Source: Promicromonospora sukumoe 327MFSha3.1 (GTDB lineage: Bacteria; Actinomycetota; Actinomycetes; Actinomycetales; Cellulomonadaceae). From it: DNA of 64,000 nucleotides. The notes below the pieces were generated by a model. That model saw nothing but the letters and a program-made list of their open reading frames with translations, ran no database searches and was not told the origin of the DNA. Shown here in pieces: positions 2,899-57,315 of the stretch. The stretch is taken from positions 806,001 to 870,000 of the forward strand of contig NZ_ARQM01000011.1 in assembly GCF_000385135.1 (NCBI RefSeq), read 5' to 3'. The number at the start of each line of letters is the position of its first letter. The first letter of the stretch is position 1. The position numbers were made by a program, and so were the translations under genes.

Positions 2899-2959
2899 CT
2901 CAGCCGGGTGGGTAACGGAGAGCTAGCAGTGCTACCTCTCCGTTACCCACCCGGCTGAG
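2899..2959. terminator. Long palindrome, bidirectional terminator between purH and a convergent gene
   Basis: Perfect 24-bp arms (2899-2922 and 2936-2959, starting CTCAGCCGGGTGGGTAACGG) with a 13-nt loop. It lies between the 3' ends of convergent purH and the flavoprotein gene. There is no T tract, so a hairpin-only terminator is inferred. Confidence 0.75.
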
Positions 2960-3003
2960 CTGTGCTTGCCCCGCGGCGACCGTCGGTGCACGGCGGCTCG
3001 GAG

Positions 3004-4404
3004 TCAGGGTCGGAAGACGGCGTCCTTGAGCTTGACCGTCGGGTCCAGGGCGCGCTCCAGGTCGACCGTCAACGGCACCCCGCGGTTCATCAGCTTCCGG
3101 ACCTGGCCCACCTCGCGCGGGGAGTCGACCAGCAGCACCGCCCGGACGGTCGCCACGCGGTGGCCCTCCGGGGTGCGGCGCGGGTGCCGGTCCAGCGCGT
3201 TCTCCAGGTAGAGCGCCGCCCAGCCGCCCGACGCCGTGGGCGTGCCGCGCAGCACCACCTCGTCGAACGGCGACGGCACCCCGAACAGCGCCAGGTCGTG
3301 CCCGAGCTGCTGCGAGAACACGTATGGCGCGTGCGAGGTGATCGGGGCGAGCCCCAGCCGTTCGCGCACGTGCTCGGGCTCGGCGGCCCGCTCGTCGAGC
3401 CCCAGCAGGGCCCGGACGGTGACCTCGGGGTCGTGCAGCGCGGCCGACCAGTGCCCGCCCGGCACCGGCCCGAACACCGGGTGCTCGCGTGTCGCGATGT
3501 CGCCCACCGCCCAGACGCGGCGCAGCGCGTCGAGGTGCAGCCGGCCCGCGGGGTCGGTCGGGGAGTGCAGGCCCGTCAGCCGGCCGGCCCGGTTGACCCG
3601 GAGCCCGCCGTTCGACTCCAGCGGCAGGGAGCCGGCCAGCCAGCCCGACGCCGGACGCGCGCCCACGGCGGCCAGCACCAGGTCGGCCTCCAGCACGCGG
3701 CCGTCGGCGAGGACGACGCTGCCACCGCCGGGCGTGTCGCCGGCCGGTCCGGGCAGCACCTTCTCGACGGCGACGTCCGTGACCAGGGTGACCCCGGCGG
3801 CGTCGTACCAGGGCGCCAGCAGGCCGCCCACGTGGCGGCCGAGCTGCCGCTCCAGCGGCACGGGGCCCGCCTCGACGACGGTGACTTGTGCACCCGCGCC
3901 GGCGGCGACGCCTGCGACCTCCGCGCCGATCCAGCCGGCGCCGACCACCACGATCCGCGTCCCCGGGACGGCGGCGGCGCGCAGCCGCTCGGCGTCACCG
4001 GCGGTGTGCAGGGTCATCGCGGCGTCCCAGCCCGCCGGGCGCAGGGGCGCGCTCCCGCAGGCGAGCACCACGGCGTCGGCCATGACGTCGTCGCCCGACG
4101 CCGTCCGCACCACCACCTGCTCGCGGTCCGCCTCCAGGCGCGTCGCGGGGTCGGCCAGCCGCAGGTCGTCGACGAGGGCCGGGAGGTCGATCCCGAGGTC
4201 GTCGGCGAGCCAGACCGGCTCGGTGCGCTTGAGCAGCTCCTTGGACAGCGGCGGGCGGTCGTACGGCGGCAGGCCCTCCGCGCCCAGCACCGTGAGGTGC
4301 CCCTCGAAACCGTGCTGCCGCAGGGCGGCGGAGGTCTGCGCGCCCGCCAGCCCCGCACCCACGACGACCACGCTGCTGGGGACCTGACCTGGAGTCGACG
4401 GCAT
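3004..4404 (-). CDS. FAD-dependent pyridine nucleotide-disulfide oxidoreductase, ferredoxin-reductase-like
   Basis: A flavoprotein of about 466 residues with two nucleotide-binding folds. The FAD site is VVVVGAGLAGAQ near the N-terminus, followed by YDRPPLSKELL, characteristic of ferredoxin/rubredoxin reductases. The NAD(P)H site is VVVGAGWIGAEVA near residue 155, and the second FAD motif is VWAVGDIAT. This family passes electrons from NAD(P)H to ferredoxins of P450 or dioxygenase systems; no partner is adjacent, so the physiological acceptor is unknown. A GTG at 4413 is possible, but a TACCGT -10 box at 4412-4417 overlaps it and sits 7 nt before the ATG at 4404, favouring a leaderless start there. 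Confidence 0.88.
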   Translation of the reverse strand: MPSTPGQVPSSVVVVGAGLAGAQTSAALRQHGFEGHLTVLGAEGLPPYDRPPLSKELLKRTEPVWLADDLGIDLPALVDDLRLADPATRLEADREQVVVRTASGDDVMADAVVLACGSAPLRPAGWDAAMTLHTAGDAERLRAAAVPGTRIVVVGAGWIGAEVAGVAAGAGAQVTVVEAGPVPLERQLGRHVGGLLAPWYDAAGVTLVTDVAVEKVLPGPAGDTPGGGSVVLADGRVLEADLVLAAVGARPASGWLAGSLPLESNGGLRVNRAGRLTGLHSPTDPAGRLHLDALRRVWAVGDIATREHPVFGPVPGGHWSAALHDPEVTVRALLGLDERAAEPEHVRERLGLAPITSHAPYVFSQQLGHDLALFGVPSPFDEVVLRGTPTASGGWAALYLENALDRHPRRTPEGHRVATVRAVLLVDSPREVGQVRKLMNRGVPLTVDLERALDPTVKLKDAVFRP

Positions 4405-4411
4405 GGACCTC

Positions 4412-4417
4412 ACGGTA
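4412..4417 (-). promoter_or_regulatory. -10 box of leaderless flavoprotein gene
   Basis: TACCGT on the minus strand, 7 nt before the ATG at 4404, the geometry of actinobacterial leaderless promoters. No clear -35 is seen. Confidence 0.5.
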
Positions 4418-4501
4418 GCTCGCAGGCCGCCAACCTGGGAATGTGCTCTGTATCAGGTTGCAAGCAGGTCACGGTCCTGCAGAATCGCGACGTTTCGGTT
4501 G

Positions 4502-4507
4502 TACCCT
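4502..4507 (+). promoter_or_regulatory. -10 box of leaderless DUF3017 gene
   Basis: TACCCT ends 6 nt before the GTG at 4514 and supports that codon over later in-frame ATGs. Confidence 0.5.
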
Positions 4508-4513
4508 CGTCCC

Positions 4514-4963
4514 GTGGATCTCAGCGAGATGCGGACTGCCCCTGGCGCACCGGGCGGTGCCACGACCCTCCTCGAGCCGGGCTCGGCGGGAACGGCTACG
4601 CTCGAACGCACCGGACGGGCCGACCTGATGACGGCCACCACGACGACCAGCCAGGAGCTCGACCGCAGTGAGCCAGCCAGCGGCGAGGACTCCGACATGA
4701 GTCCGGCCGAGCCGCAGCGCAGCAACCTCGCGATCTGGCTCGTCCTCGCAGGTGTCGGCATCTCCGTGCTGCTCGGCATGGTCGCCGGCGCGCGCGCCGG
4801 GGCGATCGGCATCGGGGTGGTCCTCGTGGTCTGCGCGATCTTCCGCGCGGTGCTCGACAGCCCCGTCGGGCTCGTCATCCGGACCCGGACCGTCGACATC
4901 ATCCTGTACGGCGCGACCGCCGTGCTGATCGGCGTCCTCGCCGTGGCGACGCCGAGCATCTGA
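4514..4963 (+). CDS. DUF3017 small membrane protein
   Basis: The C-terminal 85 residues match the actinobacterial DUF3017 pattern: three hydrophobic helices starting SNLAIWLVLAGVGIS, then IGIGVVLVVCAIFRAVL and TVDIILYGATAVLIGVL. The function is unknown. The family is often found next to folD or purine genes, consistent with its place near purH. The start is uncertain. GTG 4514 (149 aa) is preferred because a TACCCT box precedes it by 6 nt; ATGs at 4529, 4628 and 4697 would remove part of a low-complexity N-terminus without touching the conserved domain. It is divergent from the flavoprotein gene, with 109 bp between the starts. Confidence 0.75.
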   Translation: MDLSEMRTAPGAPGGATTLLEPGSAGTATLERTGRADLMTATTTTSQELDRSEPASGEDSDMSPAEPQRSNLAIWLVLAGVGISVLLGMVAGARAGAIGIGVVLVVCAIFRAVLDSPVGLVIRTRTVDIILYGATAVLIGVLAVATPSI

Positions 4964-4987
4964 CCTTCCCGCCAGGCCCTCCCGGCC

Positions 4988-5020
4988 GGTCGTCCCGCCC
5001 GGTCTTCCCGGCGGACGACC
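4988..5020. terminator. Imperfect hairpin between convergent genes
   Basis: GGTCGTCC (4988-4995) pairs with GGACGACC (5013-5020), with further GC pairing inside. It lies between the DUF3017 stop and the convergent membrane-protein stop, so it is a likely shared terminator. Confidence 0.45.
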
Positions 5021-5044
5021 TGCCCGCCCGTGGCGCGGCCGCCG

Positions 5045-6451
5045 TCAGCGGGCCGCGCCCTCCAGCGAGCCCGTCACGGGCTGCTCCGACTCGACCACGC
5101 ACAGGATGCGACGGTCGCCCTCGGCCCAGCTCTCCTCGGACGGCGCGATCGGCCAGTAGAGCAGCTCCGACTGGGCCCACTGCAGCCCCACGTACTTCGT
5201 GAACTGCGGGTAGCAAAAGGCGTCGGCGGCGTCCCACAGCGCCTGCTGCGTGGGGGCCTCGCCGTTCTTCGCGAGGCTGTCCTCCGCGGTCGTCTCCGCG
5301 TAGATCTCGCCGCCGTGCGCGGTCGTGCAGGGCACCACCGGGATCCGGTACAGCGTGGTCTGGCCCGACGTCGCGGCCGTGTCGATGCAGTCGCCCACCT
5401 GCAGGTCGGGGATCTCGGCCCCGGCGGTCGCCGAGGTGTCCGCGTCAGGCGTCGGCTCCTCGGACGGCGCGACCTGCCCGCCGGCCTCCTGGGTCGGCAG
5501 CGGCTCCAGACCGTCCGCCGGGTCCTCGGCGTAGGGGTCGGCGTACGGGTCCGTCGTCGCGTACGGGTCGACGGTCGGGCTCGGGGACGACGTCGGCGCG
5601 GTGAGCGCGGGACCGTCGTCGGGCAGCGTGATGCCGAGCGGGCCCGCCAGGGCCGGCGGCACGAACGACTTCGCGGTCGAGACCAGCCCGGGCGGCAACG
5701 ACGACGCGTAGGTGGGGGCCGCCACTGCGGCGATCCCCAGGCCGACGACGGCGAGCACGCCCACCGTGACCGCGCCCAGGGAGAAGTCGAGGGTGCGCAC
5801 CGACGACTTCTTCGCGCGGCGCACGTTGCCGGTGCCGTTGGCCTCGGCGGTGCGCATCGAGTGCACGAGCGCCGGGATCGCGAGCGGCCAGAAGAGCAGG
5901 AACGCCGCGACCACCCAGCCGGTGCGGGTCGGGTAGGGGAGCTCGTTCGGGTCGGCGTCGTCGTCGCCGGCGATGGGCCCGGGCTCGGCGGTGGTGTCAG
6001 GCTTCTCATCCGCGCCGGCCTCGTCGCCGGTCTTCTCGTCCGGACCGGCCTCGTCGTTGCCCTCGCCTGAACCGGACTCGTCGTCGCCCGCGTCCGGACC
6101 GGACTCGACCTCGGTCTGCTCGTCCGTGCCGGGCTCGGCGTCGTCGGGCTCGGCGTCGCGCCGCCTCCTGCGGAAGCCGCCCCATCGCTTACGGGCCTTG
6201 CCGGGCTCCTTGCCGGCCGCGTCCGGCTCGGCGTCGTCCGGGTTCTCCTCGGACACGTCCGACGCGGCGCCGTCGACCTCTGCCTCGGTGTCGTCAGCGT
6301 CCGACGCGGTGCCGTCCGCGTCCTGCGCCGCGTCTCCCGGCTTCTCCTCGGGTCGCTCCGACGGTGCCTCGGGTGCGTCGTCGGACGTCTTCCGCGGTTC
6401 GGGGCCGGCCGGTTCCGTCGCGCCGTGCGAGGTCTGCGTGCTGTCGGCCAT
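5045..6451 (-). CDS. CD225-like membrane protein with septum-formation-type C-terminal domain, long acidic N-terminus (paralogue 3)
   Basis: A 468-residue protein. Residues 1 to about 165 are a very acidic Asp/Glu/Ala/Pro-rich low-complexity region broken by a basic RRRRR patch. It is followed by a CD225/dispanin-like unit (GWVVAAFLLFWPLAIPALVH, then a second hydrophobic helix) and a Pro/Thr/Asp linker. The C-terminal domain begins LQVGDCIDTA with VVPCTTAHGGEIY and further cysteines, like the septum-formation family domain. The GDC..VxxC..H..E pattern is shared with the next two genes upstream, so this is one of three tandem paralogues. Topology suggests a cytoplasmic acidic N-terminus and an extracytoplasmic Cys domain. 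The ATG at 6451 has TACGAT 8 nt upstream. Confidence 0.75.
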   Translation of the reverse strand: MADSTQTSHGATEPAGPEPRKTSDDAPEAPSERPEEKPGDAAQDADGTASDADDTEAEVDGAASDVSEENPDDAEPDAAGKEPGKARKRWGGFRRRRRDAEPDDAEPGTDEQTEVESGPDAGDDESGSGEGNDEAGPDEKTGDEAGADEKPDTTAEPGPIAGDDDADPNELPYPTRTGWVVAAFLLFWPLAIPALVHSMRTAEANGTGNVRRAKKSSVRTLDFSLGAVTVGVLAVVGLGIAAVAAPTYASSLPPGLVSTAKSFVPPALAGPLGITLPDDGPALTAPTSSPSPTVDPYATTDPYADPYAEDPADGLEPLPTQEAGGQVAPSEEPTPDADTSATAGAEIPDLQVGDCIDTAATSGQTTLYRIPVVPCTTAHGGEIYAETTAEDSLAKNGEAPTQQALWDAADAFCYPQFTKYVGLQWAQSELLYWPIAPSEESWAEGDRRILCVVESEQPVTGSLEGAAR

Positions 6452-6510
6452 GGTCCCGGATCGTAGCGGTGCGGGCTTTCCGGGCGAAAGGCGCGCTTCA
6501 CCCCGTGGCT

Positions 6511-6552
6511 GCTCCTCCGGCTCCGGGGTGCGCACCCCGGAGCCGGAAGAGC
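6511..6552 (-). terminator. Palindrome after paralogue 2
   Basis: 20-bp arms (6511-6530 and 6533-6552) with one mismatch and a 2-nt loop. It begins 4 nt after the stop of the gene at 6556-7410 and separates it from the third paralogue, so a terminator is likely. Confidence 0.65.
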
Positions 6553-6555
6553 GGC

Positions 6556-7410
6556 TCATCGTTCGCTGACGCGAGCGGTCAGGTCGTCGGCGTCGGACTC
6601 GGCGAAGCAGCTCAGCTGCCGGTCCAGCGCGCGCCAGTCCCACGGATCCGGTGCCGTGTGCCAGAAGTGCAGGCCGGAGTCCTCGGCGGTCGTCCCGGTA
6701 GCGCTCTCGAAGGCCGCGCGACAGGTCTCGTCCGCGTACCGGGCCATCACGGCCGGACCAGGGAAGGCGGGTTCGGTCACGCCGTCGGTCTGGCCGAACG
6801 CGTCGCTGGGCACGTGCGTGAGCCGGTAGAGCTCCCCGCCGTGCGGTTCCGCGCACCGCACGACCTCGACGGTGCGCACCACGTCGGTCAGCCCGTCGGT
6901 GAGATAGCAGCTTCCCTCGCTCAGCTCCCGTACCGAGGTCCCGTCGATCGGGCCGGAACCCGGCTGGTCGTCGTCGACGTACCGGGTGGACGTCGCCGCG
7001 TCCGCGGCGATCTCCACGTCCTCGAACCAGAAGCCCAGGGCGACGACGCCGGCCAGTCCACCGACGGTCAGCAGACACGTCAGCGCGATGTAGAAGACGA
7101 GGCCGGCGATCCCGATGCGCCGGGCCTTCGCGCCCTCGGCCGCGAAGGTCTGCCGGTCGCCCGCGCCGAGCGCGGCCGTCGCCCGCTGGGTGTGGGGGTA
7201 GGCGGCCACTCCGAACGGCCACCACGCGAGGAGCGCGACGATGCTCCAGCCCGCTCCGGTGGACGGCTCGGCCGGCGGCCGCGGCAGGGGTTGGTACGAC
7301 GTGGGGGCGTCGTAGGGCGACCTCGCCGGGGCGTAGGGGTCCGGAGCGGGCCCGGGCCCGGGCGGACCGGGCGGGCCGGGCGGCGTCAGGGGCGGGAGCT
7401 GGTCGCTCAT
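6556..7410 (-). CDS. CD225-like membrane protein with septum-formation-type C-terminal domain (paralogue 2)
   Basis: A 284-residue protein with a Pro/Gly-rich N-terminus (PPLTPPGPPGPPGPG), then WSIVALLAWWPFGVAAYPHT and a GDRQTFAAEGAKARR loop before a second membrane helix. This is the two-helix CD225/dispanin layout. The extracytoplasmic domain carries EGSCYLTDGL, VEVVRCAEPHGGELY and later cysteines, aligning with the neighbours' GDC...C..H..E pattern. The ATG at 7410 overlaps the upstream stop as ATGA, so it is translationally coupled to paralogue 1. Function unknown; a cell-envelope or division role is inferred only from the domain name. Confidence 0.75.
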   Translation of the reverse strand: MSDQLPPLTPPGPPGPPGPGPAPDPYAPARSPYDAPTSYQPLPRPPAEPSTGAGWSIVALLAWWPFGVAAYPHTQRATAALGAGDRQTFAAEGAKARRIGIAGLVFYIALTCLLTVGGLAGVVALGFWFEDVEIAADAATSTRYVDDDQPGSGPIDGTSVRELSEGSCYLTDGLTDVVRTVEVVRCAEPHGGELYRLTHVPSDAFGQTDGVTEPAFPGPAVMARYADETCRAAFESATGTTAEDSGLHFWHTAPDPWDWRALDRQLSCFAESDADDLTARVSER

Positions 7411-8162
7411 GAGCTCGCTCCGACCTCGAAGAGCCCGGGGTAGTCCGCGAGCTCACCACGCATCGGGGTGTCCACCTGGACGAAGCAGACGGCCCTGCGC
7501 AGGCCGTCGCCCCAGTCGTCCCAGGTCGGTTCGATGGTCCAGACGGGGGAGTCTGCCGAGAGGGAGGCGCCCGAGTACTCCTCGTACCGCGGCGCGCAGT
7601 CGTACCACGCCCAGTCGGAGACCTCGCTCGTGCCCGGGAACTCGCCGTCGCCGAGATCGGTCACGGCGATCACCTGCGCGTCGTGCAGCCTGCTGCACGG
7701 GATCACGTCGACCCATCCCCAGGCCGTCTCCCAGTCGGGGGCCATGAAGCAGTCGCCGGCACGGGCCGTGAGCGGGTCGATCGTGATCGGTTCCCTCTTC
7801 GGTGCGGCAGCGGTCCGGTAGGAGCCAGGGGCGGGCTCGGCCGCCGCGGTGTCGATGCCCTCCGCCTTGAGCGAGTCGGTCGCCATCGGCGTGAGGATCA
7901 GCCCGAGGGGGACGTAGAGCATGAGCGTGCCCGCGTACAGGGCGCCACCGATCAGGACCCCGAGCCGTGCGCGGTTCCGGGCTCGGTGCGCCTCGCGCTG
8001 CGCGGTCCAGACGTCGCCGGCCCCGAGCGCGCCGGCGGCGCGGTTGGCGGCGAGCACCGCGGCGATCGCCAGCGGCCAGAACAGGATGATGCATGCGGTG
8101 ATCCAGCCGCGGTGCACGGGCACCCGCAGGTCTTCGGGCCGGATCGAGGGTGGGGCGGTCAC
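7407..8162 (-). CDS. CD225-like membrane protein with septum-formation-type C-terminal domain (paralogue 1)
   Basis: A 251-residue first gene of the tandem set, starting at GTG 8162. It has a short N-terminus, GWITACIILFWPLAIAAVLA, the conserved GDVWTAQREAHRARNRARLG loop, a second helix, then ARAGDCFMAPDW and VDVIPCSRLHDAQV. The Cys residues and His after the PC motif correspond to those in the two downstream paralogues, while the tails differ. No CDD search could be run; family naming rests on motif recall. It overlaps the next gene by ATGA. Confidence 0.72.
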   Translation of the reverse strand: MTAPPSIRPEDLRVPVHRGWITACIILFWPLAIAAVLAANRAAGALGAGDVWTAQREAHRARNRARLGVLIGGALYAGTLMLYVPLGLILTPMATDSLKAEGIDTAAAEPAPGSYRTAAAPKREPITIDPLTARAGDCFMAPDWETAWGWVDVIPCSRLHDAQVIAVTDLGDGEFPGTSEVSDWAWYDCAPRYEEYSGASLSADSPVWTIEPTWDDWGDGLRRAVCFVQVDTPMRGELADYPGLFEVGASS

Positions 8163-8286
8163 GGCGGGATGTCTATCAGGCGTTTCGCGCAGACATGGCC
8201 GATGTGACCGGATCGTGAGGCGACTTCACCCTGGCGGCACGGCGACCGCCGTCGGTGGCACCGATCCGGGAGTGGTCGGAGTCCCG

Positions 8287-8340
8287 GTACGACGCAGGGG
8301 CCGCACCTCCCCTACGGAAGGTGCGGCCCCGGCGTCGTAC
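8287..8340 (-). terminator. Long palindrome downstream of the aquaporin gene
   Basis: 22-bp arms (8287-8308 and 8319-8340, GTACGACGC..GGGGCCGCACCT) with one mismatch and a 10-nt loop, 15 nt past the aquaporin stop. Confidence 0.7.
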
Positions 8341-8355
8341 GGGTGCGGCGAGGGG

Positions 8356-9333: not shown

Positions 9334-9335
9334 GA

Positions 9336-12914
<3,579 letters not shown>

Positions 12915-12930: not shown

Positions 12931-12976
12931 CGTGTCAGACCCTCAGGTCACCCGGGTGACCTGAGGGTCTGACACG
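12931..12976 (+). terminator. Perfect 46-bp loopless palindrome after icd
   Basis: Two perfect 23-bp arms meet at 12953/12954 around CCCGGG. The arm core TGTCAGACCC.CAGGTCACC recurs at 57274-57315 with a compensated base change. It lies 16 nt past the icd stop. Confidence 0.7.
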
Positions 12977-16692: not shown

Positions 16693-16709
16693 TCACCTCG
16701 CGGGCTGTA

Positions 16710-16762
16710 CGGCGCGCGGGCAGACTCGTTGCCGCACGGGCGATGAGTCTGCCCGCCCGCCG
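16710..16762 (+). terminator. Palindrome after the ABC exporter gene
   Basis: 18-bp arms (16710-16727 and 16745-16762) with one mismatch and a 17-nt loop, 17 nt past the stop. Confidence 0.55.
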
Positions 16763-16813
16763 TCGTCGGACCGGGGGAGAGCCGCGGTGCGGCACCGACC
16801 GAGGAGATCCCCC

Positions 16814-24922: not shown

Positions 24923-24937
24923 GCGGCGGCTCACCAG

Positions 24938-24980
24938 GCGGGCGGCGGCCGTAACTCGTGGAGTTACGGCCGCCGCCCGC
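24938..24980 (+). terminator. Palindrome after the pullulanase gene
   Basis: Perfect 20-bp arms (24938-24957 and 24961-24980, GCGGGCGGCGGCCGTAACTC) with a 3-nt loop, 15 nt past the stop. Confidence 0.75.
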
Positions 24981-25023
24981 ATGCTGAGTACCCGCTCACG
25001 TGTCTCCGCTGAACAGTGACGGG

Positions 25024-28295: not shown

Positions 28296-28357
28296 CGCCG
28301 AACGTAGGTTTGGTCGGCTCATGGAGCGCCATGAGCCGACCAACCCTACGTTCGGCG
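28296..28357 (+). terminator. Long palindrome ending the sugar-importer operon
   Basis: 29-bp arms (28296-28324 and 28329-28357) with one mismatch and a 4-nt loop. The outer part, CGCCGAACGTAGG..TGGTCG, is shared with the palindrome at 36197-36252. Confidence 0.75.
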
Positions 28358-33713: not shown

Positions 33714-33837
33714 GCGACGTCGGCGTGAATAGCAAAAGGTCTCAGGTACTTTCGTTGCAATCCCGGGGTTTCTTGCGAATGGCCGCTGAACGGCGGGCGC
33801 CGGGCACCGGTTTCGACCGCCGCTGCTACGATCTTCG

Positions 33838-33912
33838 GGTCGCGACTGGCGTCAGGTGGATCACCACCGGGGAGCGACGAGTCATGCCGACGACGGGTCG
33901 TTCGCCTGGGCC
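33838..33912 (+). ncRNA. ZTP (pfl) riboswitch upstream of glyA-folD
   Basis: Second copy of the pfl core: CGCGACTGGCG, the hairpin GGTGGATCACC, CCGGGGAGCGA (pairs with TCGC to close P1), a spacer stem, and the 3' element TTCGCCTGGGCCC (33901-33913). About 100 nt of possible expression platform remain before the glyA ATG at 34014. It would switch on glycine/serine-folate metabolism when ZMP/ZTP rises. It fills most of the otherwise gene-free 33702-34013 stretch. Confidence 0.9.
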
Positions 33913-34013
33913 CTGGGTCACCTCGTGGAAGGTGTGCGCCCGGGCCGTCCGGCACGGTGCGTGTGCCATCCGCCGCCGTCCGACAATCCCCGTCCCGCAT
34001 GAATCGAGGAGCT

Positions 34014-36183: not shown

Positions 36184-36196
36184 CCTGATCTGCCGC

Positions 36197-36252
36197 CGAA
36201 CGTAGGAATGGTCGCTCTCTCAGCACTGAGAGGGCGACCATTCCTACGTTCG
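36197..36252 (+). terminator. Long palindrome ending glyA-folD
   Basis: 27-bp arms (36197-36223 and 36226-36252, CGAACGTAGGAATGGTCGC) with one mismatch and a 2-nt loop, 13 nt past the folD stop. Related to 28296-28357. Confidence 0.75.
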
Positions 36253-36372
36253 ACCCCGGCCGACGGCGGGACGCCGGCGGGTGAACTGGCCTGCGATGAG
36301 TTGCGGGGCGGCGCGGCGTCTGAAGAGTTGATGTCGGGGCCGCTGCGGCCCCGACCGACTCAGGAGGACATC

Positions 36373-45498: not shown

Positions 45499-45562
45499 CC
45501 TTCGAGGCCTAAGTTTCTTCGCTTTGCGACTGCTGAAAGCGAAGAAACTTAGGCCTCGAAGG
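45499..45562 (-). terminator. Long palindrome after the Mrp gene
   Basis: Perfect 27-bp arms (45499-45525 and 45536-45562, CCTTCGAGGCCTAAGTTTC) with a 10-nt loop. Unusually AT-rich arms for this window. It is the main content of the 246-nt gap 45402-45647. Confidence 0.75.
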
Positions 45563-50678: not shown

Positions 50679-50687
50679 ACTATGAGC

Positions 50688-51554: not shown

Positions 51555-51574
51555 GGGCGCTCCGCTCCGGGCAC

Positions 51575-51642
51575 TGACTTCGGTCGGTTGTCTTGAGACC
51601 GGTCACTCAACCGACCGGTCTCAAGACAACCGACCGAAGTCA
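51575..51642 (+). terminator. Long palindrome after the YflT gene (twin of 52847-52914)
   Basis: Perfect 29-bp arms (51575-51603 and 51614-51642, TGACTTCGGTCGGTTG...) with a 10-nt loop, 20 nt past the stop. Its arms match the palindrome at 52847-52914 except for one base pair changed on both arms. Confidence 0.75.
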
Positions 51643-51679
51643 TTTTCGAGCCGTGCAGGGGACCGAACTCATCACGGGC

Positions 51680-51765
51680 GGCAGGGTCGCGCCACCAAGG
51701 TGAGCTGGCCTGGAGCCCCCGCCGACGGCGCGCCAACAAGGTGAGCTGACCTAAGAGACCCTGCC
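51680..51765. repeat. Direct and inverted repeats in the gap before the AbiEi/DUF559-like gene
   Basis: GCGCCACCAAGGTGAGCTGG and a near-copy with two changes (51689-51711 and 51730-51752) stand in direct repeat, bracketed by GGCAGGGTC (51680-51688) and GACCCTGCC (51757-51765). These and the palindrome fill the 323-nt gap 51555-51877; no gene is seen there. Confidence 0.5.
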
Positions 51766-51877
51766 GACGGCCCGCCAACGCTTCGAGCGCGACCACAGGT
51801 CCCGCAGAGCGGCGTTCGTGCACAGTTCCGCCCGCGCGTCGCCCGCGGGCCCCTGTCCGTGAGGCACCGTCGAGGGC

Positions 51878-52837
51878 ATGGTCGACGTAGAGATCCCGAG
51901 AGTCGCGCTCGCGCTGGAGCAGGACCGCAACGCCCTGGCCACGGCCGCCCGCAAGGGCGACGTCGTCCGGATCCGGCGCGGCGCGTACTGCACGCCCGAC
52001 GACCTGCGGGTCGACGGCGCCGCCCGCGCCCGCGAGGACCGGAACCGGGCGCTGGCCCGCGTGCGCGCCCTGGACTCCCAGCTCCGGGTCGAGCACGTGT
52101 TCAGCCACGCGTCGGCCGCGCTGCTCCACGGCTGCCGCGTCTGGCGGAACCCGCGCGAGACGCACGTCTACCAGCGCTATCGCGCGTCGGGTCACGCCTC
52201 GGCCGACGTGCGCCGACACTCCTGGACGCTCGCCCCCGACGACGTCACCGACGCGGCCGGACTGCCGGTCACCACGCTCGAGCGCACCGTCGTCGACTGC
52301 GCGCGGGCCATGCACCCGCTCGAGGGCCTGGTCGTCGCCGACTCCGCGCTCGCCTCAGGGGCGGAACGCGATGCGCTGCTCGACGTCCTCGCGGCGGGCG
52401 CCGGCCATCGCGGAGCCCGGAGGGCCCGGCTCGTGATCGAGCTGGCCGACGCCGGCGCCCAGTCGGCCTGGGAGACGTGGACCCGGTACGAGCTGCTCCG
52501 CGCCGGGCTGCCGCGGCCGACGACCCAGCTGCCGGTCGAGACCGATCGCGGGCTCTTCCACACCGACCTCGGGTACGGGCAATGGGCCCTGGGCATCGAG
52601 TTCGACGGCCAGGTCAAGTACCGGCCCGACGGCGTCCGACCTGGTCATGATCCCGCGCAGGAGTACCTGCGCGAGAAGGCGCGGGCCGAGGCGATCCGCC
52701 GGGCCGGGGTCACGATCGAGCACGTCACGGCCGCGGACAAGCGCGACGTCCGAGCGCTGCTCGCCAGGCTGACCAGTCACCTCCCGCCGGAGGTGGTCCG
52801 CGCCGCCCGCCCGGACCCATGCTTGCCCCCGAGCTGA
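51878..52837 (+). CDS. AbiEi-antitoxin-like N-domain plus DUF559/Vsr-like nuclease-fold C-domain
   Basis: A 319-residue protein. The N-terminal region (about 15-45; LEQDRNALATAARKGDVVRIRRGAY) resembles the winged-helix AbiEi antitoxin domain. The middle has FSHASAALLHGC and TTLERTVVDCARAM, common in AbiEi-like proteins. The C-terminal segment LGIEFDGQVKY...EYLREKARAEAIRRAGV matches the DUF559/very-short-patch-repair PD-(D/E)xK fold (Glu, Asp, Lys in EFDGQVK). No AbiEii-type toxin is adjacent. Such orphan genes are frequent in actinobacteria; a DNA-linked or defence role is plausible but unproven. Twin palindromes flank it on both sides. Confidence 0.75.
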   Translation: MVDVEIPRVALALEQDRNALATAARKGDVVRIRRGAYCTPDDLRVDGAARAREDRNRALARVRALDSQLRVEHVFSHASAALLHGCRVWRNPRETHVYQRYRASGHASADVRRHSWTLAPDDVTDAAGLPVTTLERTVVDCARAMHPLEGLVVADSALASGAERDALLDVLAAGAGHRGARRARLVIELADAGAQSAWETWTRYELLRAGLPRPTTQLPVETDRGLFHTDLGYGQWALGIEFDGQVKYRPDGVRPGHDPAQEYLREKARAEAIRRAGVTIEHVTAADKRDVRALLARLTSHLPPEVVRAARPDPCLPPS

Positions 52838-52846
52838 TGGCAGAAA

Positions 52847-52914
52847 TGACTTCGGTCGGTTGCCTTGAGACCGGTCGGTCGAATGACCGGTCTCAAGGCA
52901 ACCGACCGAAGTCA
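52847..52914. terminator. Long palindrome between convergent genes (twin of 51575-51642)
   Basis: Perfect 30-bp arms (52847-52876 and 52885-52914) with an 8-nt loop, 9 nt past the AbiEi/DUF559-like stop and 20 nt from the aminopeptidase stop, so it serves both. Confidence 0.75.
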
Positions 52915-52934
52915 GTTGGTGCACTCCAGCAGGC

Positions 52935-54476
52935 TCAGCGCAGCGACGCCATCCAGGCCTCGACGTCCTCCGGGCGGCGGGGCAGCGCCGCCGAGAGGTT
53001 CTCGTACCCGTCCTCGGTGACCAGCACGTCGTCCTCGATGCGCACGCCGATGCCGCGCCACTCCTCCGGCACGGCCAGGTCGTCGGCCTTGAAGTACAGC
53101 CCCGGCTCGATGGTGAACACCATGCCCGGCTCCAGCACGCCGTCGAGGTAGAGCTCGCGGCGCGCCTGCGCGCAGTCGTGGACGTCCAGGCCCAGGTGGT
53201 GCGACGTGCCGTGCACCATCCAGCGGCGGTGCTGCTGGCCGTCCTCGTCGAGCGCCTCGGCGGCGGTGACGCCGTCGGGCAGGAAGCCCCACTCCTCGAG
53301 GCGCGCCGCGATGACCTCCATGGCCGCCGCGTGGATGTCGCGGAACTTGGTGCCCGGCTTCGCGACGGCGAACGCGGCGTCGGCGGCGTCCAGCACCGCC
53401 TGGTAGATCTTGCGCTGGACGTCGGTGTACTCGCCGTCCACGGGCAGCGACCGCGTGACGTCGGCGGTGTAGAGCGAGTCGACCTCGACGCCGCCGTCGA
53501 GCAGCAGCACGTCGCCGGACCGCACCTCGCCGTCGTTGCGGATCCAGTGCAGGGTCGTGGCGTGCTCGCCCGAGGCCGCGATGGTCTCGTAGCCCACGGC
53601 GTTGCCCTCGAGCCGGGCGTGCCCGTCGAAGGTGGTCTCGACGACGCGCTCGCCGCGGCGGTGCTCCTTGGCGGCGGGCAGCGCGCGCACGACGGCCTCG
53701 AAGCCCTCGATGGTGCGCGTGACGGCCTCGCGCATCTGCGCGATCTCGTACTCGTCCTTGACCAGGCGCAGCTCGGAGGTGGCCTCGACGAGCACGTCGT
53801 CGGAGACGATCTGCTCGTCCTCGGTCTCGCCGGCCTCCAGGCGGAGCTCCTCGACGAGGGCCTCGATCGCGTCGTCCGCGCCGCTCACCACGAGCAGCCG
53901 GACGCCGCCGTCGCCCACGTCCTTGGCCAGGGCGTCGCCCAGCTCGTCGATGTGGCGGGCCTCGATGCCGGTCAGCGTCTCGATGTCGGCCAGCGACGGG
54001 CGGGCGCCCACCCAGAACTCGCCGTAGCGCGCGTCGGCGTAGAACTCCTCGTTGTCGCGCGGGGCCAGCGGCCGCACGTAGAGCACGGCGTGGTGGTTCG
54101 AACCGGCGTCGCCGGCGCCGTCCTCGACCGGGTGCAGCACGAGCACGGCGTCGGGCTCGCGGTCCGTGCCCAGGCCGGTGAGGTGCGCGAACGCCGAGTG
54201 CGGCCGGAACCGGTAGTCGGTGTCGTTCGAGCGCTGCTTGAGCGAGCCGGCGGGGACCACGAGGCGGGCGCCGGGGAAGCGCTCCGAGAGCGCGGAGCGG
54301 CGGGCGACGGTGAACGGCGCGGCGTCCGACGGCGTCAGGCCGAGCTCGGCGCGCGGGGCCCACTGCGACATCACGAAGTTCTTGAACGCGGTCGAGGCGG
54401 GGCGGTGCGAACGGTTGGAGCCGCGGTCCGCGGTTCCCTGCTCGTCAGGCTGCGATGGGGTGGTGGGCTCGCTCAT
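52935..54476 (-). CDS. Xaa-Pro aminopeptidase (M24B, aminopeptidase P)
   Basis: Removes N-terminal residues before proline. A 513-residue protein with the AMP_N domain (about 60-200; FRPHSAFAHLTGLG) and a pita-bread catalytic domain with metal ligands in LLLDGGVEVDSLYTADVTRS (two Asp), the HGTSHHLGLDVHD His, TIEPGLYF (Glu) and GVRIEDDVLVTEDG (Glu). It lacks a signal peptide. ATG 54476 lies inside the upstream hydrolase gene: the two overlap by 32 nt in different frames, so translation is probably coupled. Confidence 0.94.
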   Translation of the reverse strand: MSEPTTPSQPDEQGTADRGSNRSHRPASTAFKNFVMSQWAPRAELGLTPSDAAPFTVARRSALSERFPGARLVVPAGSLKQRSNDTDYRFRPHSAFAHLTGLGTDREPDAVLVLHPVEDGAGDAGSNHHAVLYVRPLAPRDNEEFYADARYGEFWVGARPSLADIETLTGIEARHIDELGDALAKDVGDGGVRLLVVSGADDAIEALVEELRLEAGETEDEQIVSDDVLVEATSELRLVKDEYEIAQMREAVTRTIEGFEAVVRALPAAKEHRRGERVVETTFDGHARLEGNAVGYETIAASGEHATTLHWIRNDGEVRSGDVLLLDGGVEVDSLYTADVTRSLPVDGEYTDVQRKIYQAVLDAADAAFAVAKPGTKFRDIHAAAMEVIAARLEEWGFLPDGVTAAEALDEDGQQHRRWMVHGTSHHLGLDVHDCAQARRELYLDGVLEPGMVFTIEPGLYFKADDLAVPEEWRGIGVRIEDDVLVTEDGYENLSAALPRRPEDVEAWMASLR

Positions 54477-55323
54477 GCCCCCCAGTGTTCCACGCAGCCC
54501 GCCCGAAGTCGGCAAGGGCCCGGGTGAGCACCCGGTTGAACGCGTTGGGGGCATCGGTGTTGACGGGGTGCCCCGCCTTCGGCAGCACGACGAGCGCGCC
54601 GTCGCGGGCCGCGGCGAGGTGCCGCTGCTCCTCGATGCGCATCCTGTCGTGCGCGCCGTTGACGAACCAGAGCGGGACCCGTGCGGCTCGCACGTTCGCG
54701 ATCGACGACATGCTCGCGAGGTCCGTCAGCGCGTCCGTGACGACGTCCCAGGTGGGGCGGTGCATCTCGGCGGTCTGCTGCGGGGCGATCTCGAGCCGGC
54801 GCAGGTCCGCGCCGCCGGGGGCGCTCTGCAGCGAGCCGAACGGCATGGCCTCCACGGCGAGCTGCATCCGGTGTACGGCCGGGTGGACCACGCGCCCGCG
54901 CAGGCGGCGGGAGAGATAGACGGCGTTCGCCACCCTCCGCGAGATGTCGCGGTAGAGCCGGACGGGCTTGCCCTTGGGATCGGCCGTGCAGCCGGCGGCC
55001 AGCACGCCCACGAGACGGTCGGTGGTGTCGGGCCGTGCGGCCCAGGCCAGGGACGTGTAGCCGCCCAGGGACAGGCCGACCAGGGCGACAGGTCCGGCGG
55101 GGAGCGACTCCACGGCCTCGTCGACGGCCTCGAAGGCGCCGGCCATGCTGAACCGGTCGTTGCGGCGCGAGCCGTGGGCGGGGAGGTCGACGGCGACGGC
55201 CGCGTGGCCGGCGGCGCGCACGTGCTCGATCTGGTGCTCCCAGATCGCGCCGGAGGCGCGCATGCCGTGGACGAAGACGACGCTCGTGGGGTTGTGGGGC
55301 TGGGTCTCGCGGTTGGTGCTCAT
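54445..55323 (-). CDS. Alpha/beta hydrolase
   Basis: A 292-residue alpha/beta-fold hydrolase. VVFVHGMRASGAIWEHQI holds the oxyanion HG; the nucleophile is Ser85 in LVGLSLGGY; the acid is Asp in FVNGAHDRM; and the His is in KAGHPVN. There is no lid domain signature that points to a substrate. ATG 55323 follows GAAGG at fair spacing. It overlaps the aminopeptidase P gene by 32 nt at its 3' end, forming a two-gene operon, and is divergent from the PHP gene. Confidence 0.88.
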   Translation of the reverse strand: MSTNRETQPHNPTSVVFVHGMRASGAIWEHQIEHVRAAGHAAVAVDLPAHGSRRNDRFSMAGAFEAVDEAVESLPAGPVALVGLSLGGYTSLAWAARPDTTDRLVGVLAAGCTADPKGKPVRLYRDISRRVANAVYLSRRLRGRVVHPAVHRMQLAVEAMPFGSLQSAPGGADLRRLEIAPQQTAEMHRPTWDVVTDALTDLASMSSIANVRAARVPLWFVNGAHDRMRIEEQRHLAAARDGALVVLPKAGHPVNTDAPNAFNRVLTRALADFGRAAWNTGGHERAHHPIAA

Positions 55324-55471
55324 CTTGCCTTCGATGATGCGTTATCGGCGCGGGCGCGTGGCGTACGACGGCGGCGCATGGCGTGAACGTGCTGTGTGGG
55401 CTTGCCGCCGCGCCGTCGCGGGCGTGCTGCACCTCACCACGCCCCGGGCCTCCGGGGGCCCCGGGGATCTC

Positions 55472-55477
55472 TACCCT
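55472..55477 (+). promoter_or_regulatory. -10 box of leaderless PHP gene
   Basis: TACCCT, 6 nt before GTG 55484. Confidence 0.5.
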
Positions 55478-55483
55478 TGTGGA

Positions 55484-56332
55484 GTGATCGACCTCCACAC
55501 GCACTCCACGGCGTCCGACGGCACCGACTCGCCAGCGCGCCTGGTGGAGGTCGCCGCGCGCGCCGGCATCGCCACGCTCGCCATCACGGACCACGACACG
55601 ACGTCGGGCTGGGCCGAGGCCGCCGACGCCGCCGGCCGGTTCGGCGTCGGCCTGGTGCGCGGCGCCGAGATCTCCGCGATCGCCCGGACGGCGGGCTGGG
55701 GCACCGGCGTGCACCTGCTGGCCTACCTGCACGACCCGGCGCACCCCGACCTGCTCGCCGAGACCGAGCGCACGCGCGCCGACCGCGAGTCGCGGGCCCG
55801 GCGCATGGTCGACCTGCTGGCCGAGGACTTCCCGATCACCTGGGACGACCTGCTCGCCCAGACCAAGCCCGGCACCACGCTCGGCCGCCCGCACCTCGCG
55901 GACGCGCTGGTGGCGGCCGGCGTCGTCCGGGACCGGGACGAGGCGTTCGCGACCATCCTGCGCCCGGGCACCAAGTACTACGTGGGCCACTACGCGCCCG
56001 ACGCCGTCGCCGCGGTCCGCGCCGTCCGCGCGGCCGGCGGCGTGCCGGTCTTCGCGCACCCGGGTGCCGACGCCCGCGGCCGGATCGTCCCGGACTCGAC
56101 GATCGAGGAACTCGCGGCGGCCGGGCTCGCGGGGCTCGAGGTGGACCACCGGGACCACACGCCCGACACGCGCCGCCGGCTGCGCGAGGTCGCCGAGTCG
56201 CTGGGCCTGCTGGTCACGGGGTCGAGCGACTTCCACGGGGCGGGCAAGCAGAACCGGATCGGCGAGAACACCACCGCCCCCGGCGTGCTCGAGGCGATCG
56301 CCGCGCAGGGAGCCCTGGAGGTGCTCCGTTGA
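55484..56332 (+). CDS. PHP-domain phosphoesterase (YciV/RnaAM-like)
   Basis: A 282-residue PHP metal-dependent phosphoesterase: IDLHTHSTASDG (HxH), ITDHDT, GAEISA, FAHPG and SSDFHGAGK, the full ligand set. Homologues such as E. coli YciV/RnaAM hydrolyse 3',5'-nucleoside bisphosphates or shorten RNA 5' ends. GTG 55484 is the leaderless start; the open frame upstream to 55145 is antisense to the hydrolase gene. Its stop overlaps the MarC TTG start. Confidence 0.9.
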   Translation: MIDLHTHSTASDGTDSPARLVEVAARAGIATLAITDHDTTSGWAEAADAAGRFGVGLVRGAEISAIARTAGWGTGVHLLAYLHDPAHPDLLAETERTRADRESRARRMVDLLAEDFPITWDDLLAQTKPGTTLGRPHLADALVAAGVVRDRDEAFATILRPGTKYYVGHYAPDAVAAVRAVRAAGGVPVFAHPGADARGRIVPDSTIEELAAAGLAGLEVDHRDHTPDTRRRLREVAESLGLLVTGSSDFHGAGKQNRIGENTTAPGVLEAIAAQGALEVLR

Positions 56333-56964
56333 GCTGGTTCGACGTCGCGCTGTTCACCGAGGTGTTCGTGACGCTCTTCGTGATCATGGACCCGCCGGGA
56401 ACGGTGCCGGTGTTCCTCGCGCTCACGTCGCGCATGACGGCGCAGGACCGCAAGCGGGCCGCGCGCACCGCGATCTTCGTGGCGTTCGGCGTGATCGTCG
56501 TCTTCGCGCTGTTCGGCCAGCTCCTGCTGGAGCACATGGGCATCTCGCTGGCGGCGCTGCAGGCGTCCGGCGGGCTGCTCCTGCTGCTGGTGGCGCTCGA
56601 GCTGCTGATGGGCAAGATGGACGCGGGCGAGACCGAGTCCGGCGGCTCCACCAAGAACGTGGCGCTGGTGCCGCTGGCCACGCCGCTGCTGGCCGGGCCG
56701 GGCACGATCGTCGCGACCATGGTGTTCGTGCAGCAGGGCGTCAGCGCGGGGGAGTCGCCCGTGGGGCACTACGCCTCGATCGGCGTCGGCATCGTGGCGG
56801 TCTGCGTGTGCACGTGGGCGGCGATGCGGTTCGCGGGGCTGGTGCACCGCGTGCTCAAGGACTCCGGCGTCACCCTGGTCACCCGCATCGCGGGTGTGCT
56901 GCTCGCCGCGATCGCCGTGCAGATGATCGCCAACGGCGTCATCGAGTTCGTGCGGACGGTCTAG
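56329..56964 (+). CDS. MarC-family integral membrane protein
   Basis: A 211-residue protein with six hydrophobic helices: TEVFVTLFVIMDPPGTVPVFLAL at the start, VALVPLATPLLAGPGTI in the middle, and RIAGVLLAAIAVQMIANGV at the end, matching MarC (UPF0056). Transport function has never been demonstrated for the family, and the old link to antibiotic resistance is not supported. The start is TTG 56329, overlapping the PHP stop (TTGA), so expression is coupled. The stop is 1 nt from the convergent DUF1905 stop. Confidence 0.92.
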   Translation: MSWFDVALFTEVFVTLFVIMDPPGTVPVFLALTSRMTAQDRKRAARTAIFVAFGVIVVFALFGQLLLEHMGISLAALQASGGLLLLLVALELLMGKMDAGETESGGSTKNVALVPLATPLLAGPGTIVATMVFVQQGVSAGESPVGHYASIGVGIVAVCVCTWAAMRFAGLVHRVLKDSGVTLVTRIAGVLLAAIAVQMIANGVIEFVRTV

Positions 56965-56965
56965 C

Positions 56966-57271
56966 TCAGACGTCGATCGTCTCCAGGGCGACGCGCACCG
57001 GCTTCGCCGGGGCGAGGCCCTCGGCCTCCCGCACCTTCTTCTTCATCGGCAGCACGTAGCCGCCGTCGCTGTCGCTCGGGAACACGGACGTGGTCCACGT
57101 GGTCTTCCCGACCGTGACGCGCACCCGGATCGACCCGAACCCGCGCGGGGGCAGCGGGAGGTCGGCCAGCTCGTCGGACTGCTCCGGCGGCACGGTCACG
57201 AACCACCAGGAGTCGGTCCGGGCCTGCCACTGCCACAGGGGTGCGGCGAACTCGATCTGCACCGTCCCCAT
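56966..57271 (-). CDS. DUF1905 domain protein
   Basis: A 101-residue beta-barrel-like protein: EFAAPLWQWQARTDSWWFVTVPPEQSDEL, RGFGSIRVRVTVGKTTWTTSVFPS, then GGYVLPMKKKVREAEGL and a VRVALETI strand, the DUF1905 consensus. Function unknown. ATG 57271 lacks a Shine-Dalgarno and lies only 2 nt after the palindrome at 57274-57315; an in-frame GTG at 57262 is the alternative. It is downstream of the DEAD-box helicase on the same strand. Confidence 0.85.
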   Translation of the reverse strand: MGTVQIEFAAPLWQWQARTDSWWFVTVPPEQSDELADLPLPPRGFGSIRVRVTVGKTTWTTSVFPSDSDGGYVLPMKKKVREAEGLAPAKPVRVALETIDV

Positions 57272-57273
57272 AC

Positions 57274-57315
57274 TGTCAGACCCACAGGTCACCGGGGTGA
57301 CCTGTGGGTCTGACA
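57274..57315 (-). terminator. Palindrome between the DEAD helicase and DUF1905 genes
   Basis: Perfect 20-bp arms (57274-57293 and 57296-57315, TGTCAGACCCACAGGTCACC) with a 2-nt loop. It is the same family as 12931-12976, with a T:A to A:T swap on both arms. It ends the helicase gene and touches the DUF1905 start. Confidence 0.7.

What the first reader, a model, noticed from the sequence alone, without database searches (positions are those of the whole stretch)
2899..57315. Family of long covarying palindromes at gene ends
Seen directly: at least twelve intergenic palindromes with arms of 18-30 bp, mostly perfect (e.g. 2899-2959, 8287-8340, 12931-12976, 24938-24980, 28296-28357, 36197-36252, 45499-45562, 51575-51642, 52847-52914, 57274-57315). 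All sit just 3' of genes and none has a T tract. Three pairs share sequence: 12931/57274, 28296/36197 and 51575/52847. In two pairs the copies differ by a base pair changed on both arms (T:A to A:T; T:A to C:G), so the fold is conserved while sequence drifts. This exceeds ordinary hairpin terminators and suggests a dispersed palindromic element recruited as terminator, or palindrome maintenance by intra-arm gene conversion.
Basis: partly seen in the sequence, partly recalled or inferred. Interest (0 to 1): 0.72.

Follow-up and report, generated by a model that had tools for sequence, protein, structure and literature searches.

The report
Hairpin repeats swapping at gene ends
Many genes in this actinobacterium end in long, almost perfect DNA hairpins that belong to a dozen or so repeated families, and sister species sometimes carry a hairpin of a different family at the same gene end, which points to small mobile hairpins that replace one another where transcription is likely to stop.

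Summary
All 13 long palindromes of the window are intergenic, 3-85 nt 3' of a gene. In an 864-kb sample of the same contig 125 of 133 are non-coding, and 100 of those fall into 12 multi-copy families. They occur at 0.50 per convergent, 0.19 per codirectional and 0.04 per divergent gap. Arms covary between copies and orthologues. The two families searched outside the genus (F5, strict F2) are nearly confined to it; copy number varies widely within it (0-176 for F1).

New here: against a sister species, 8 of 43 gaps with palindromes in both hold clearly different ones, read by eye. Palindromes also sit inside remnant arms of others (15 cases, about 0.45 expected; 13 same-family, 2 cross-family). 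In one series F12 is intact in three relatives, reduced to outer arms around F2 in one, and replaced by F2 here. A 67-68 bp insertion has no target duplication, and no REP transposase (PF01797) was found in 13 of 13 genomes.

Best reading: mobile REP-like hairpins that serve as U-poor terminators and replace one another. Termination and the copying enzyme are inferred, not shown.

The parts
2899..2959 (.). palindrome, arms 30, loop 1; small family with C11:155297 and 379658; convergent gap after purH
   Evidence: in G006 the same gap holds an F2 and an F3 palindrome instead
6511..6552 (.). palindrome, arms 21, loop 0, single copy in the sample
8287..8340 (.). palindrome, arms 22, loop 10; small GC-rich family (3 in own sample)
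10541..10594 (.). F2 palindrome (GGTCGAGCTTGTCGAGACC arms), 8 nt after the malate/lactate dehydrogenase-type gene
   Evidence: strict F2 pattern 41 copies in own genome, 1 copy in 1 of the other 393 genomes of the class
12931..12976 (.). F1 palindrome (TGTCAGACnnnCAGGTCAC arms), 16 nt after the monomeric isocitrate dehydrogenase gene
   Evidence: F1 pattern counts
16709..16763 (.). imperfect palindrome, arms 25, loop 5, single copy in the sample
24930..24988 (.). palindrome, arms 28, loop 3; single in own sample, a longer version in G006
28296..28357 (.). palindrome, arms 29, loop 4; CGAACGTAGG family
36197..36252 (.). palindrome, arms 27, loop 2, 13 nt after folD; G006 keeps a related one, G007 and G003 carry unrelated palindromes at the same gene end
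45499..45562 (.). F3 palindrome (GAGGCCTAAGTTTCTTCGCTTT arms), arms 27, loop 10
51575..51642 (.). F5 palindrome, perfect arms 30, loop 8; MFE -61.2 kcal/mol, z -14.7
52847..52914 (.). F5 palindrome, perfect arms 30, loop 8, convergent gap; several relatives carry F5 nested inside older F5 arms in this neighbourhood
57274..57315 (.). F1 palindrome, perfect arms 20, loop 2, 5 nt after the DEAD-box helicase gene; other palindromes at this gene end in relatives

Best explanation
These are small mobile hairpins: palindromes of about 40-100 bp in a dozen or so sequence families that spread, mostly as intact units, to gene ends. There they serve, in the transcript, as long U-poor terminator or 3'-end hairpins. 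Because one hairpin does the job as well as another, a newly arrived palindrome can take over a gene end; it lands beside or inside the older hairpin, whose arms then decay. Shown here: families, gene-end bias, near-restriction of F5 and strict F2 to the genus, large copy-number differences, different palindromes at orthologous gene ends, concentric nesting, one clean insertion, no target duplication, no PF01797 transposase, paired substitutions. Inferred: that the hairpins end transcription (about 0.75), that they move within the genome (about 0.85), and the route. My best guess for the route (about 0.3) is breakage at the tip of an extruded hairpin followed by end-joining capture of another hairpin fragment. 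The alternative is an unidentified transposase. Perfection of the arms is kept by selection on the RNA hairpin together with template-switch repair between the arms.
For: Families: 100 of 125 non-coding palindromes in the own sample fall into 12 multi-copy clusters. Over the genus set, 215 of 298 fall into 14 clusters of 3 or more, one of which (cluster 8) is a single orthologous site. Placement: 52 for 104 convergent, 67 for 344 codirectional and 5 for 114 divergent gaps; codirectional median 20 nt after the upstream stop. 124 of 140 own palindromes (score 14 or more, codirectional or convergent) lie within 60 nt of a stop. Density: 11.0 palindromes (score 20 or more) per 100 kb here, 1.4 in 80 named actinobacterial loci. 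Restriction: F5 in 12 of 13 genus genomes and 1 of 16 others. Strict F2: 41 copies here, 1 in the other 393 genomes of the class. F1: 176 in G006, 34 here, 0 in three genomes. Turnover: own against G006 (about 91% identical, collinear): 30 gaps same, 13 different, 15 own only, 10 G006 only. By eye 8 of the 13 are unrelated palindromes. C11:479788 has F2 here, F6 in G006, F1 in G010. Nesting: inverted remnants of 10 bp or more flank 14 of 298 (2.0 expected); 13 bp or more, 6 (0 expected). Known outer arms on both sides: 15 against about 0.45. F12, F2 inside F12 arms, F2 alone at one gene end. Insertion: F4 at C11:528663, absent in five relatives that align through the gap, no target duplication; none overall. 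Transcript level: sense-strand G.U 39 against A.C 18 (own, p 0.0075), convergent control 12 against 16; more T downstream. Paired changes 18 against 1.1.
Against: No transcript data: termination is not shown, and most lack a U tract. No enzyme identified; end joining is plausible only because Ku is present in 13 of 13 genus genomes, which discriminates nothing. 25 of 125 own palindromes are single-copy and may be ordinary hairpin terminators. Of the 13 'different' gaps, 2 are the same family (C11:490307, window 36183) and 3 more are single-copy or doubtful; 2 of 5 are diverged versions of one element; some 'only' calls are decayed copies. Of the 15 nested cases, 13 are within one family: 8 are F5 in F5, mostly at what look like two orthologous gene ends, and the F2 and F6 cases may be tandem arms; only 2 are cross-family. 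The G.U excess could partly reflect strand-biased C-to-T mutation. The other genomes show it weakly (34 against 22, p 0.14), and the pooled convergent control leans the other way (24 against 38, p 0.098). One-sided changes (51) outnumber paired ones (18). Arms are less diverged than flanks against G006 (0.067, 0.134) but not against G010 (0.089, 0.072). F2 and F6 also occur as single arms (own: 31 isolated, 23 paired; 12 and 5), and in G010 F1 has 7 isolated against 5 paired.
Confidence: 0.62

Rival explanations
1. Non-autonomous transposons: each family is moved by an unidentified transposase that recognises its outer arms and inserts without duplicating the target, as REPs are thought to be moved by RAYTs.
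For: Mostly whole-palindrome units, species-specific amplification, a clean insertion without duplication. In F12 the 16-nt outer arms are shared between copies while the inner 23-24 nt is nearly unrelated and of nearly fixed length, as expected of a recognised end and a free spacer (the copies were selected by an arm pattern).
Against: No PF01797 in 13 of 13 genomes. The F5 search of the whole own genome showed no pair of separated arms. Isolated arms of F1, F3, F4, F5 and F7 in about 1.7 Mb of samples number 17 against 122 paired, and the examples printed are mostly decayed palindromes. A dozen families would need a dozen enzymes or one that reads shape. Other transposase families were not searched.
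Confidence: 0.35
2. Ordinary long GC-rich hairpin terminators, whose sequence likeness is inheritance or coincidence.
For: Gene-end placement; long palindromes also occur in other actinobacterial loci, often just after the isocitrate dehydrogenase gene; U-lacking hairpin ends are described in Streptomyces (PMC8269248, passages).
Against: 100 of 125 belong to sequence families at unrelated loci; density is about 8 times that of 80 other actinobacterial loci; different palindromes at orthologous ends and nesting.
Confidence: 0.05
3. The arms stay perfect only because of template switching or conversion between the arms; there is no selection on the RNA.
For: Perfect arms of 30 bp exceed what a terminator is usually said to need (recalled). 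Template switching is published as able to create stems and restore their pairing (PMC8794818, abstract). Paired changes are in excess.
Against: Sense-strand excess of G.U over A.C mismatches in codirectional but not convergent gaps. The paired changes seen are mostly single scattered pairs, not copied tracts. Gene-end placement itself needs another cause.
Confidence: 0.15
4. Uptake-sequence pairs: a DNA-uptake or similar drive keeps the arm sequences alike, and inverted pairs double as terminators, as in Haemophilus.
For: Same placement and same idea of shared arms (PMC5217627, passages).
Against: Isolated arms are rare for F3, F4, F5 and F7 and for F1 in own and G006, whereas uptake sequences are mostly single (recalled); many families in one genome. 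F2 is the exception (31 isolated, 23 paired in own).
Confidence: 0.04
5. Binding sites for a chromosome-structuring protein (gyrase, a nucleoid protein) placed where convergent transcription builds up supercoils.
For: Convergent bias; E. coli REPs are targeted by gyrase (PMC3733652, Discussion part 1).
Against: A dozen families of different sequence; sense-strand mismatch bias; replacement of one family by another.
Confidence: 0.08

Closest known systems
REP / BIME elements with RAYT transposases (GTAG and CGTC super-families)
   Same: Dispersed palindromic repeats between codirectional and convergent genes, G.T pairs in stems, patchy distribution among species, families from tens to thousands of copies (PMC3733652, passages and Discussion part 1; PMC2817692, passages).
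   Different: Stems of 16-48 bp instead of 5-13; no conserved tetranucleotide tag in the flanks of clusters 1-6; no PF01797 gene in 13 genomes; a dozen or so families in one genome; exchange of families at orthologous gene ends and concentric nesting. CGTC REPs are also reported to lack a dedicated transposase (abstract passage).
I-shaped / U-lacking hairpin terminators of GC-rich bacteria
   Same: Stable hairpin shortly after the stop codon, U-poor (PMC8269248, passages).
   Different: Those are not described there as sequence families; these are repeated and replace one another.
Uptake-sequence terminators (USS, DUS)
   Same: Gene-end hairpins built from a repeated sequence in inverted orientation (PMC5217627, passages; PMC2267715, passages).
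   Different: Arms here occur mostly as pairs in most families, and there are many families.
MITEs
   Same: Short non-coding repeats with inverted ends and species-specific copy number (recalled definition).
   Different: No target duplication, no interior beyond a short loop, no partner element with the same ends found.
Stem-loop sequence families of Cozzuto et al. 2008
   Same: General class of repeated stem-loop families (PMC2267715, passages).
   Different: That survey covered 40 genomes, with Corynebacterium and Mycobacterium among them; the passages I saw mention neither exchange at gene ends nor nesting.

Membership tests
REP/RAYT system | IS200/IS605-like tyrosine transposase (PF01797) in the genome | tested here: not met
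   0 of 13 genomes, control positive in 5 of 14; own genome
REP/RAYT system | GTAG or CGTC tag at one end | tested here: not met
   flank columns of clusters 1-6 only; no column above 70%, no shared tag
REP/RAYT system | intergenic, codirectional or convergent placement | tested here: met
MITE | target-site duplication | tested here: not met
   flank repeats of 2, 3, 4, 5 bp: 130, 41, 17, 5 observed, 135.3, 48.6, 16.4, 5.0 expected, of 215; the three 6-7 bp repeats are tandem copies at one G011 gap; single insertion without one
MITE | autonomous element with the same ends | tested here: inconclusive
   none for F5 in the own genome; others only in about 1.7 Mb of samples
Intrinsic hairpin terminator | stable hairpin shortly 3' of the stop codon | tested here: met
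   5 of 13 window palindromes folded
Intrinsic hairpin terminator | U tract after the stem | tested here: not met
   4 or more T of 8 in 14.8% of 108 family members, above the 1.9% control but a minority
Intrinsic hairpin terminator | transcripts end there | not testable with these tools
   no RNA data
Uptake-sequence terminator | the arm also abundant as single copies | tested here: not met
   own sample, F1, F3, F4, F5, F7: 2, 0, 1, 1, 0 isolated against 28, 19, 9, 10, 6 paired; exceptions F2 (31 against 23), F6 (12 against 5) and F1 in G010 (7 against 5)
Rfam families | match at gathering score | tested here: not met
   only two ZTP riboswitches in the window

The most novel reading that the evidence does not exclude
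Hairpins replace hairpins by shape, not sequence. Any long perfect palindrome can be copied into the broken tip of another, by a host repair route (hairpin cleavage plus end joining), so unrelated families spread without a transposase of their own and gene ends are rewritten from the inside out.
Probability: 0.25. Interest if true: 0.85.

Novelty: new variant of a known kind. Interest (0 to 1): 0.64.

Why it matters
If true, terminators in these bacteria are not merely tuned sequences but a niche occupied by competing mobile hairpins. That would offer a natural experiment on how 3' ends evolve, a test of whether paired substitutions in stems come from selection or from template switching, and a case of mobile palindromes that may need no transposase of their own. 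A practical result would be a supply of candidate two-way terminators for actinobacterial engineering.

Tried and rejected
RAYT as mover: rejected by PF01797 searches. Target duplications: none; the excess of 6-7 bp repeats in cluster 2 proved to be three tandem copies at one G011 gap. Uptake-sequence reading: rejected for most families. Rfam: nothing at the palindromes. An insertion sequence with family arms as ends: none seen for F5 in the own genome or for eight families in the samples. Idea that F12 inner segments are made anew at each copying: not decidable, because copies were picked by an arm pattern and only 12 orthologous pairs were found among 20 of 21 and 20 of 27 fetched loci. Ku as a discriminating marker: present everywhere. 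Naming the genus: no named record was found; synteny with Myceligenerans indicum points to Promicromonosporaceae. Literature: 10 searches listed no title on these families or on exchange of palindrome families at gene ends; only open-licence PMC text was searched, and seven papers were opened, none read whole.

Mistakes: one search used a mis-spaced F1 pattern and its counts are not used (repeated correctly). One search crashed and was rerun.
Full report
OBSERVATION. The window lies in contig C11 (806001-870000) of a 6.25-Mb, 18-contig genome; GC is 69-77%. An independent scan finds 13 palindromes of score 15 or more (1 per pair, -2 per mismatch), all intergenic; the repeat finder lists them among its 25 longest. 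Gene positions come from my own codon-usage gene caller, not from an annotation. By these calls each palindrome lies 3 to 85 nt after the stop of a gene. The claimed paired differences are there: 12931 against 57274 (T:A to A:T) and 51575 against 52847 (T:A to C:G), the latter with different loops. The five that I folded give -37.7 to -64.3 kcal/mol, z -7.0 to -14.7.

SCALE. I sampled 864 kb of the same contig (C11:1-800000 plus the window). It holds 133 palindromes of score 16 or more, 8 of them mostly coding; one Markov shuffle holds none. They number 52 for 104 convergent gaps, 67 for 344 codirectional and 5 for 114 divergent ones (1 unassigned). In codirectional gaps the median distance to the upstream stop is 20 nt and to the downstream start 97 nt. 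Of 125 non-coding palindromes, 100 fall into 12 multi-copy clusters of 21, 19, 19, 9, 8, 6, 5, 4, 3, 2, 2 and 2; 25 are single. Family members in the own sample are 37-101 bp long, median 58 (104 of score 14 or more). I call the main ones F1 (TGTCAGACnnnCAGGTCAC), F2 (GGTCGAGCTTGTCGAGACC), F3 (GAGGCCTAAGTTTCTTCGCTTT), F4 (GGTCGGTAGAACGTCAGGTGGTCGG), F5 (ACTTCGGTCGGTTG...GACCGGTC), F6 (GCGAGGTAGAAC units), F7 (GTGCGCTTCTACCCAG) and F12 (GAGTGCTGGGTATTTG; seen in relatives). The density of palindromes of score 20 or more is 11.0 per 100 kb, against 1.4 in 80 named actinobacterial loci around the isocitrate dehydrogenase gene.

TAXONOMIC SPREAD. Only F5 and F2 were searched outside the genus. F5 matches at E 0.001 or less in the own genome, in 11 of 12 other genomes of the genus and in 1 of 16 genomes outside it; G007 has none and G008 one match. 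A strict F2 pattern has 41 copies here and 1 in the other 393 genomes drawn from the class. Strict F1 counts over 13 genus genomes: 176 (G006), 51 (G007), 34 (own), 11, 9, 5, 3, 2, 2, 1, 0, 0, 0. Strict F12: 55 (G006), 27, 21, 20, 12, 11, 8, 2, 2, 1, and 0 in own, G005 and G008. Amplification looks lineage-specific. Synteny with Myceligenerans indicum places the organism near Promicromonosporaceae; the genus could not be named.

DIFFERENT PALINDROMES AT THE SAME GENE END. At the end of the DEAD-box helicase gene (window 57272-57320), own, G006 and G007 carry F1; G005, G012 and G004 a weaker F2-type; G002 an F5-type; G009 another palindrome; G003 and G001 weak others (score 13); G011 and G008 were not covered. 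After folD (36184-36330), own, G007 and G003 carry three unrelated palindromes, while G006 keeps one related to own. Over about 374 kb collinear with G006 (about 90-92% identical), gaps with a palindrome of score 14 or more in at least one genome divide into 30 same, 13 different, 15 own only and 10 G006 only; 158 gaps have none, and 27 plus 4 could not be placed. Read by eye, 8 of the 13 hold clearly unrelated palindromes (at 2 of these the own one is single-copy in the sample; at C11:521364 the left anchor also differs); 2 (C11:490307, window 36183) are the same family; 3 are doubtful or single-copy on both sides. Against G010 (95.4% identical over 109 kb): 8 same, 5 different, 8 own only, 2 G010 only, 47 none, 29 unplaced; 2 of the 5 are diverged versions of one element. 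At C11:479788, own has F2, G006 F6 and G010 F1.

NESTING. At C11:527196, F12 is intact in G010, G007 and G004 (and apparently G011, where the cut runs through it). In G006 an F2 palindrome sits between the outer 9-10 bp arms of F12, and in own there is F2 alone. Six of the 13 genomes (G003, G005, G012, G002, G008, G009) gave no usable alignment, and G001 has only a 31-bp gap without a palindrome. At C11:471452, F2 sits in the loop of a local hairpin that G010 has without it. Across 298 palindromes, the 50-bp flanks carry inverted remnants of 10 bp or more in 14 cases (2.0 expected from re-paired flanks) and of 13 bp or more in 6 (0 expected). Outer arms of named families lie on both sides in 15 cases, against about 0.45 expected. 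Thirteen of these are same-family (8 F5 in F5, mostly at what look like two orthologous gene ends; 3 F2; 1 F1; 1 F6, which with F2 may be tandem arms); 2 are cross-family, F5 and F2 inside F12 arms. Independent events are therefore fewer than 15.

A CLEAN INSERTION. In the divergent gap at C11:528663, own has a 67-68 bp F4 palindrome that is absent in G010, G006, G007, G011 and G004, with the same flanking letters and no target duplication. G001 has a different, palindrome-like sequence there (read by eye); the other genomes did not align through the gap. Over 215 family members, flank repeats of 2-5 bp occur about as often as in re-paired flanks; the three 6-7 bp repeats are tandem copies at one G011 gap.

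COVARIATION AND LEVEL OF SELECTION. Between orthologous palindromes of own and G006 (30 compared, 4 skipped; 721 pairs) there are 18 paired changes (1.1 expected), 51 one-sided and 5 unpaired double changes; arm divergence is 0.067 against 0.134 in the flanks. Against G010 (8 compared, 207 pairs): 7 paired (0.55 expected), 19 one-sided, 2 double; here arms are not less diverged than flanks (0.089 against 0.072). Where transcription direction is known, mismatches on the sense strand are G.U 39 against A.C 18 (own, p 0.0075). The convergent control is 12 against 16 (own) and 24 against 38 (pooled, p 0.098); the other genomes give 34 against 22 (p 0.14). Pooled over all sampled genomes, codirectional gaps give 73 against 40 (p 0.0025), orthologues not removed, and ignoring strand 61 against 52. 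The eight bases after the hairpin on the sense strand hold more T (1.73 against 1.20) and 4 or more T in 14.8% against 1.9% (108 codirectional family members). This fits a hairpin that acts in the transcript; strand-biased mutation remains a caveat.

MOVER. PF01797 is absent in 13 of 13 genomes; other transposase families were not searched. Isolated arms of F1, F3, F4, F5 and F7 number 17 against 122 paired over own, G006 and G010, but F1 in G010 has 7 against 5, and F2 (own 31 against 23) and F6 (own 12 against 5) are often single. Ku is present in 13 of 13, which permits but does not support an end-joining route. SbcCD-type cleavage of hairpin tips is recalled, not tested.

KNOWN THINGS. REP/RAYT elements share placement and abundance but not stem length, end tag or transposase (PMC3733652: passages and part 1 of the Discussion; PMC2817692: passages). 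U-lacking hairpin ends in Streptomyces are described (PMC8269248: passages). Inverted repeats enriched after E. coli stop codons are mostly parts of intrinsic terminators (PMC6060812: abstract). Template switching can keep stems paired (PMC8794818: abstract and start of the introduction). Uptake-sequence terminators: PMC5217627 (passages) and PMC2267715 (passages). Ten searches of open-licence PMC text (listed in Tried and rejected) listed no title on these families or on family exchange at gene ends; subscription papers were not searchable.

VERDICT. The finding is real and larger than reported: a new variant of the REP-like kind, with exchange of families and inside-out nesting as its unusual features. 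Termination and the copying route are the open steps.

Noticed in passing
window 1095-1181 and 33832-33918 (+): Two ZTP riboswitches (47.5 and 57.5 bits), ahead of purH and of the glyA-folD pair.
   Followed up: no
G011 ortholog of the gap window 51555-51877 (L168): Three F5 palindromes in tandem at 217-bp spacing in one gap, with shared flanks.
   Followed up: partly
G004 and G012 loci L253-L292: F12 copies share 16-nt outer arms but their inner 23 or 24 nt are nearly unrelated between paralogues, while most orthologous pairs keep them (one pair, L258/L274, differs at 12 inner positions).
   Followed up: partly
L108 and L124 (Curtobacterium), L085 and L135 (Nocardioides): Other genera show recurrent palindromes of their own (GGAGGCGCGG in Curtobacterium, GTGAGGCAGGTTC and CGCCGAGTCGGC in Nocardioides), so gene-end families may be more general in actinobacteria (read by eye).
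   Followed up: no
window 51878-52837 (+): A gene with weak AbiEi-antitoxin matches lies between the two F5 palindromes.
   Followed up: no
G007 whole genome: G007 has an Xaa-Pro aminopeptidase 97% identical to that of the own genome but no F5 match, although G006 has 64 match rows: a whole family absent or lost in one close relative.
   Followed up: no
G001 ortholog of the gap at C11:528663 (L206): A different palindrome-like sequence (GCAGTTGCTGCCAG arms) lies near the spot where own has its F4 insertion (read by eye).
   Followed up: no
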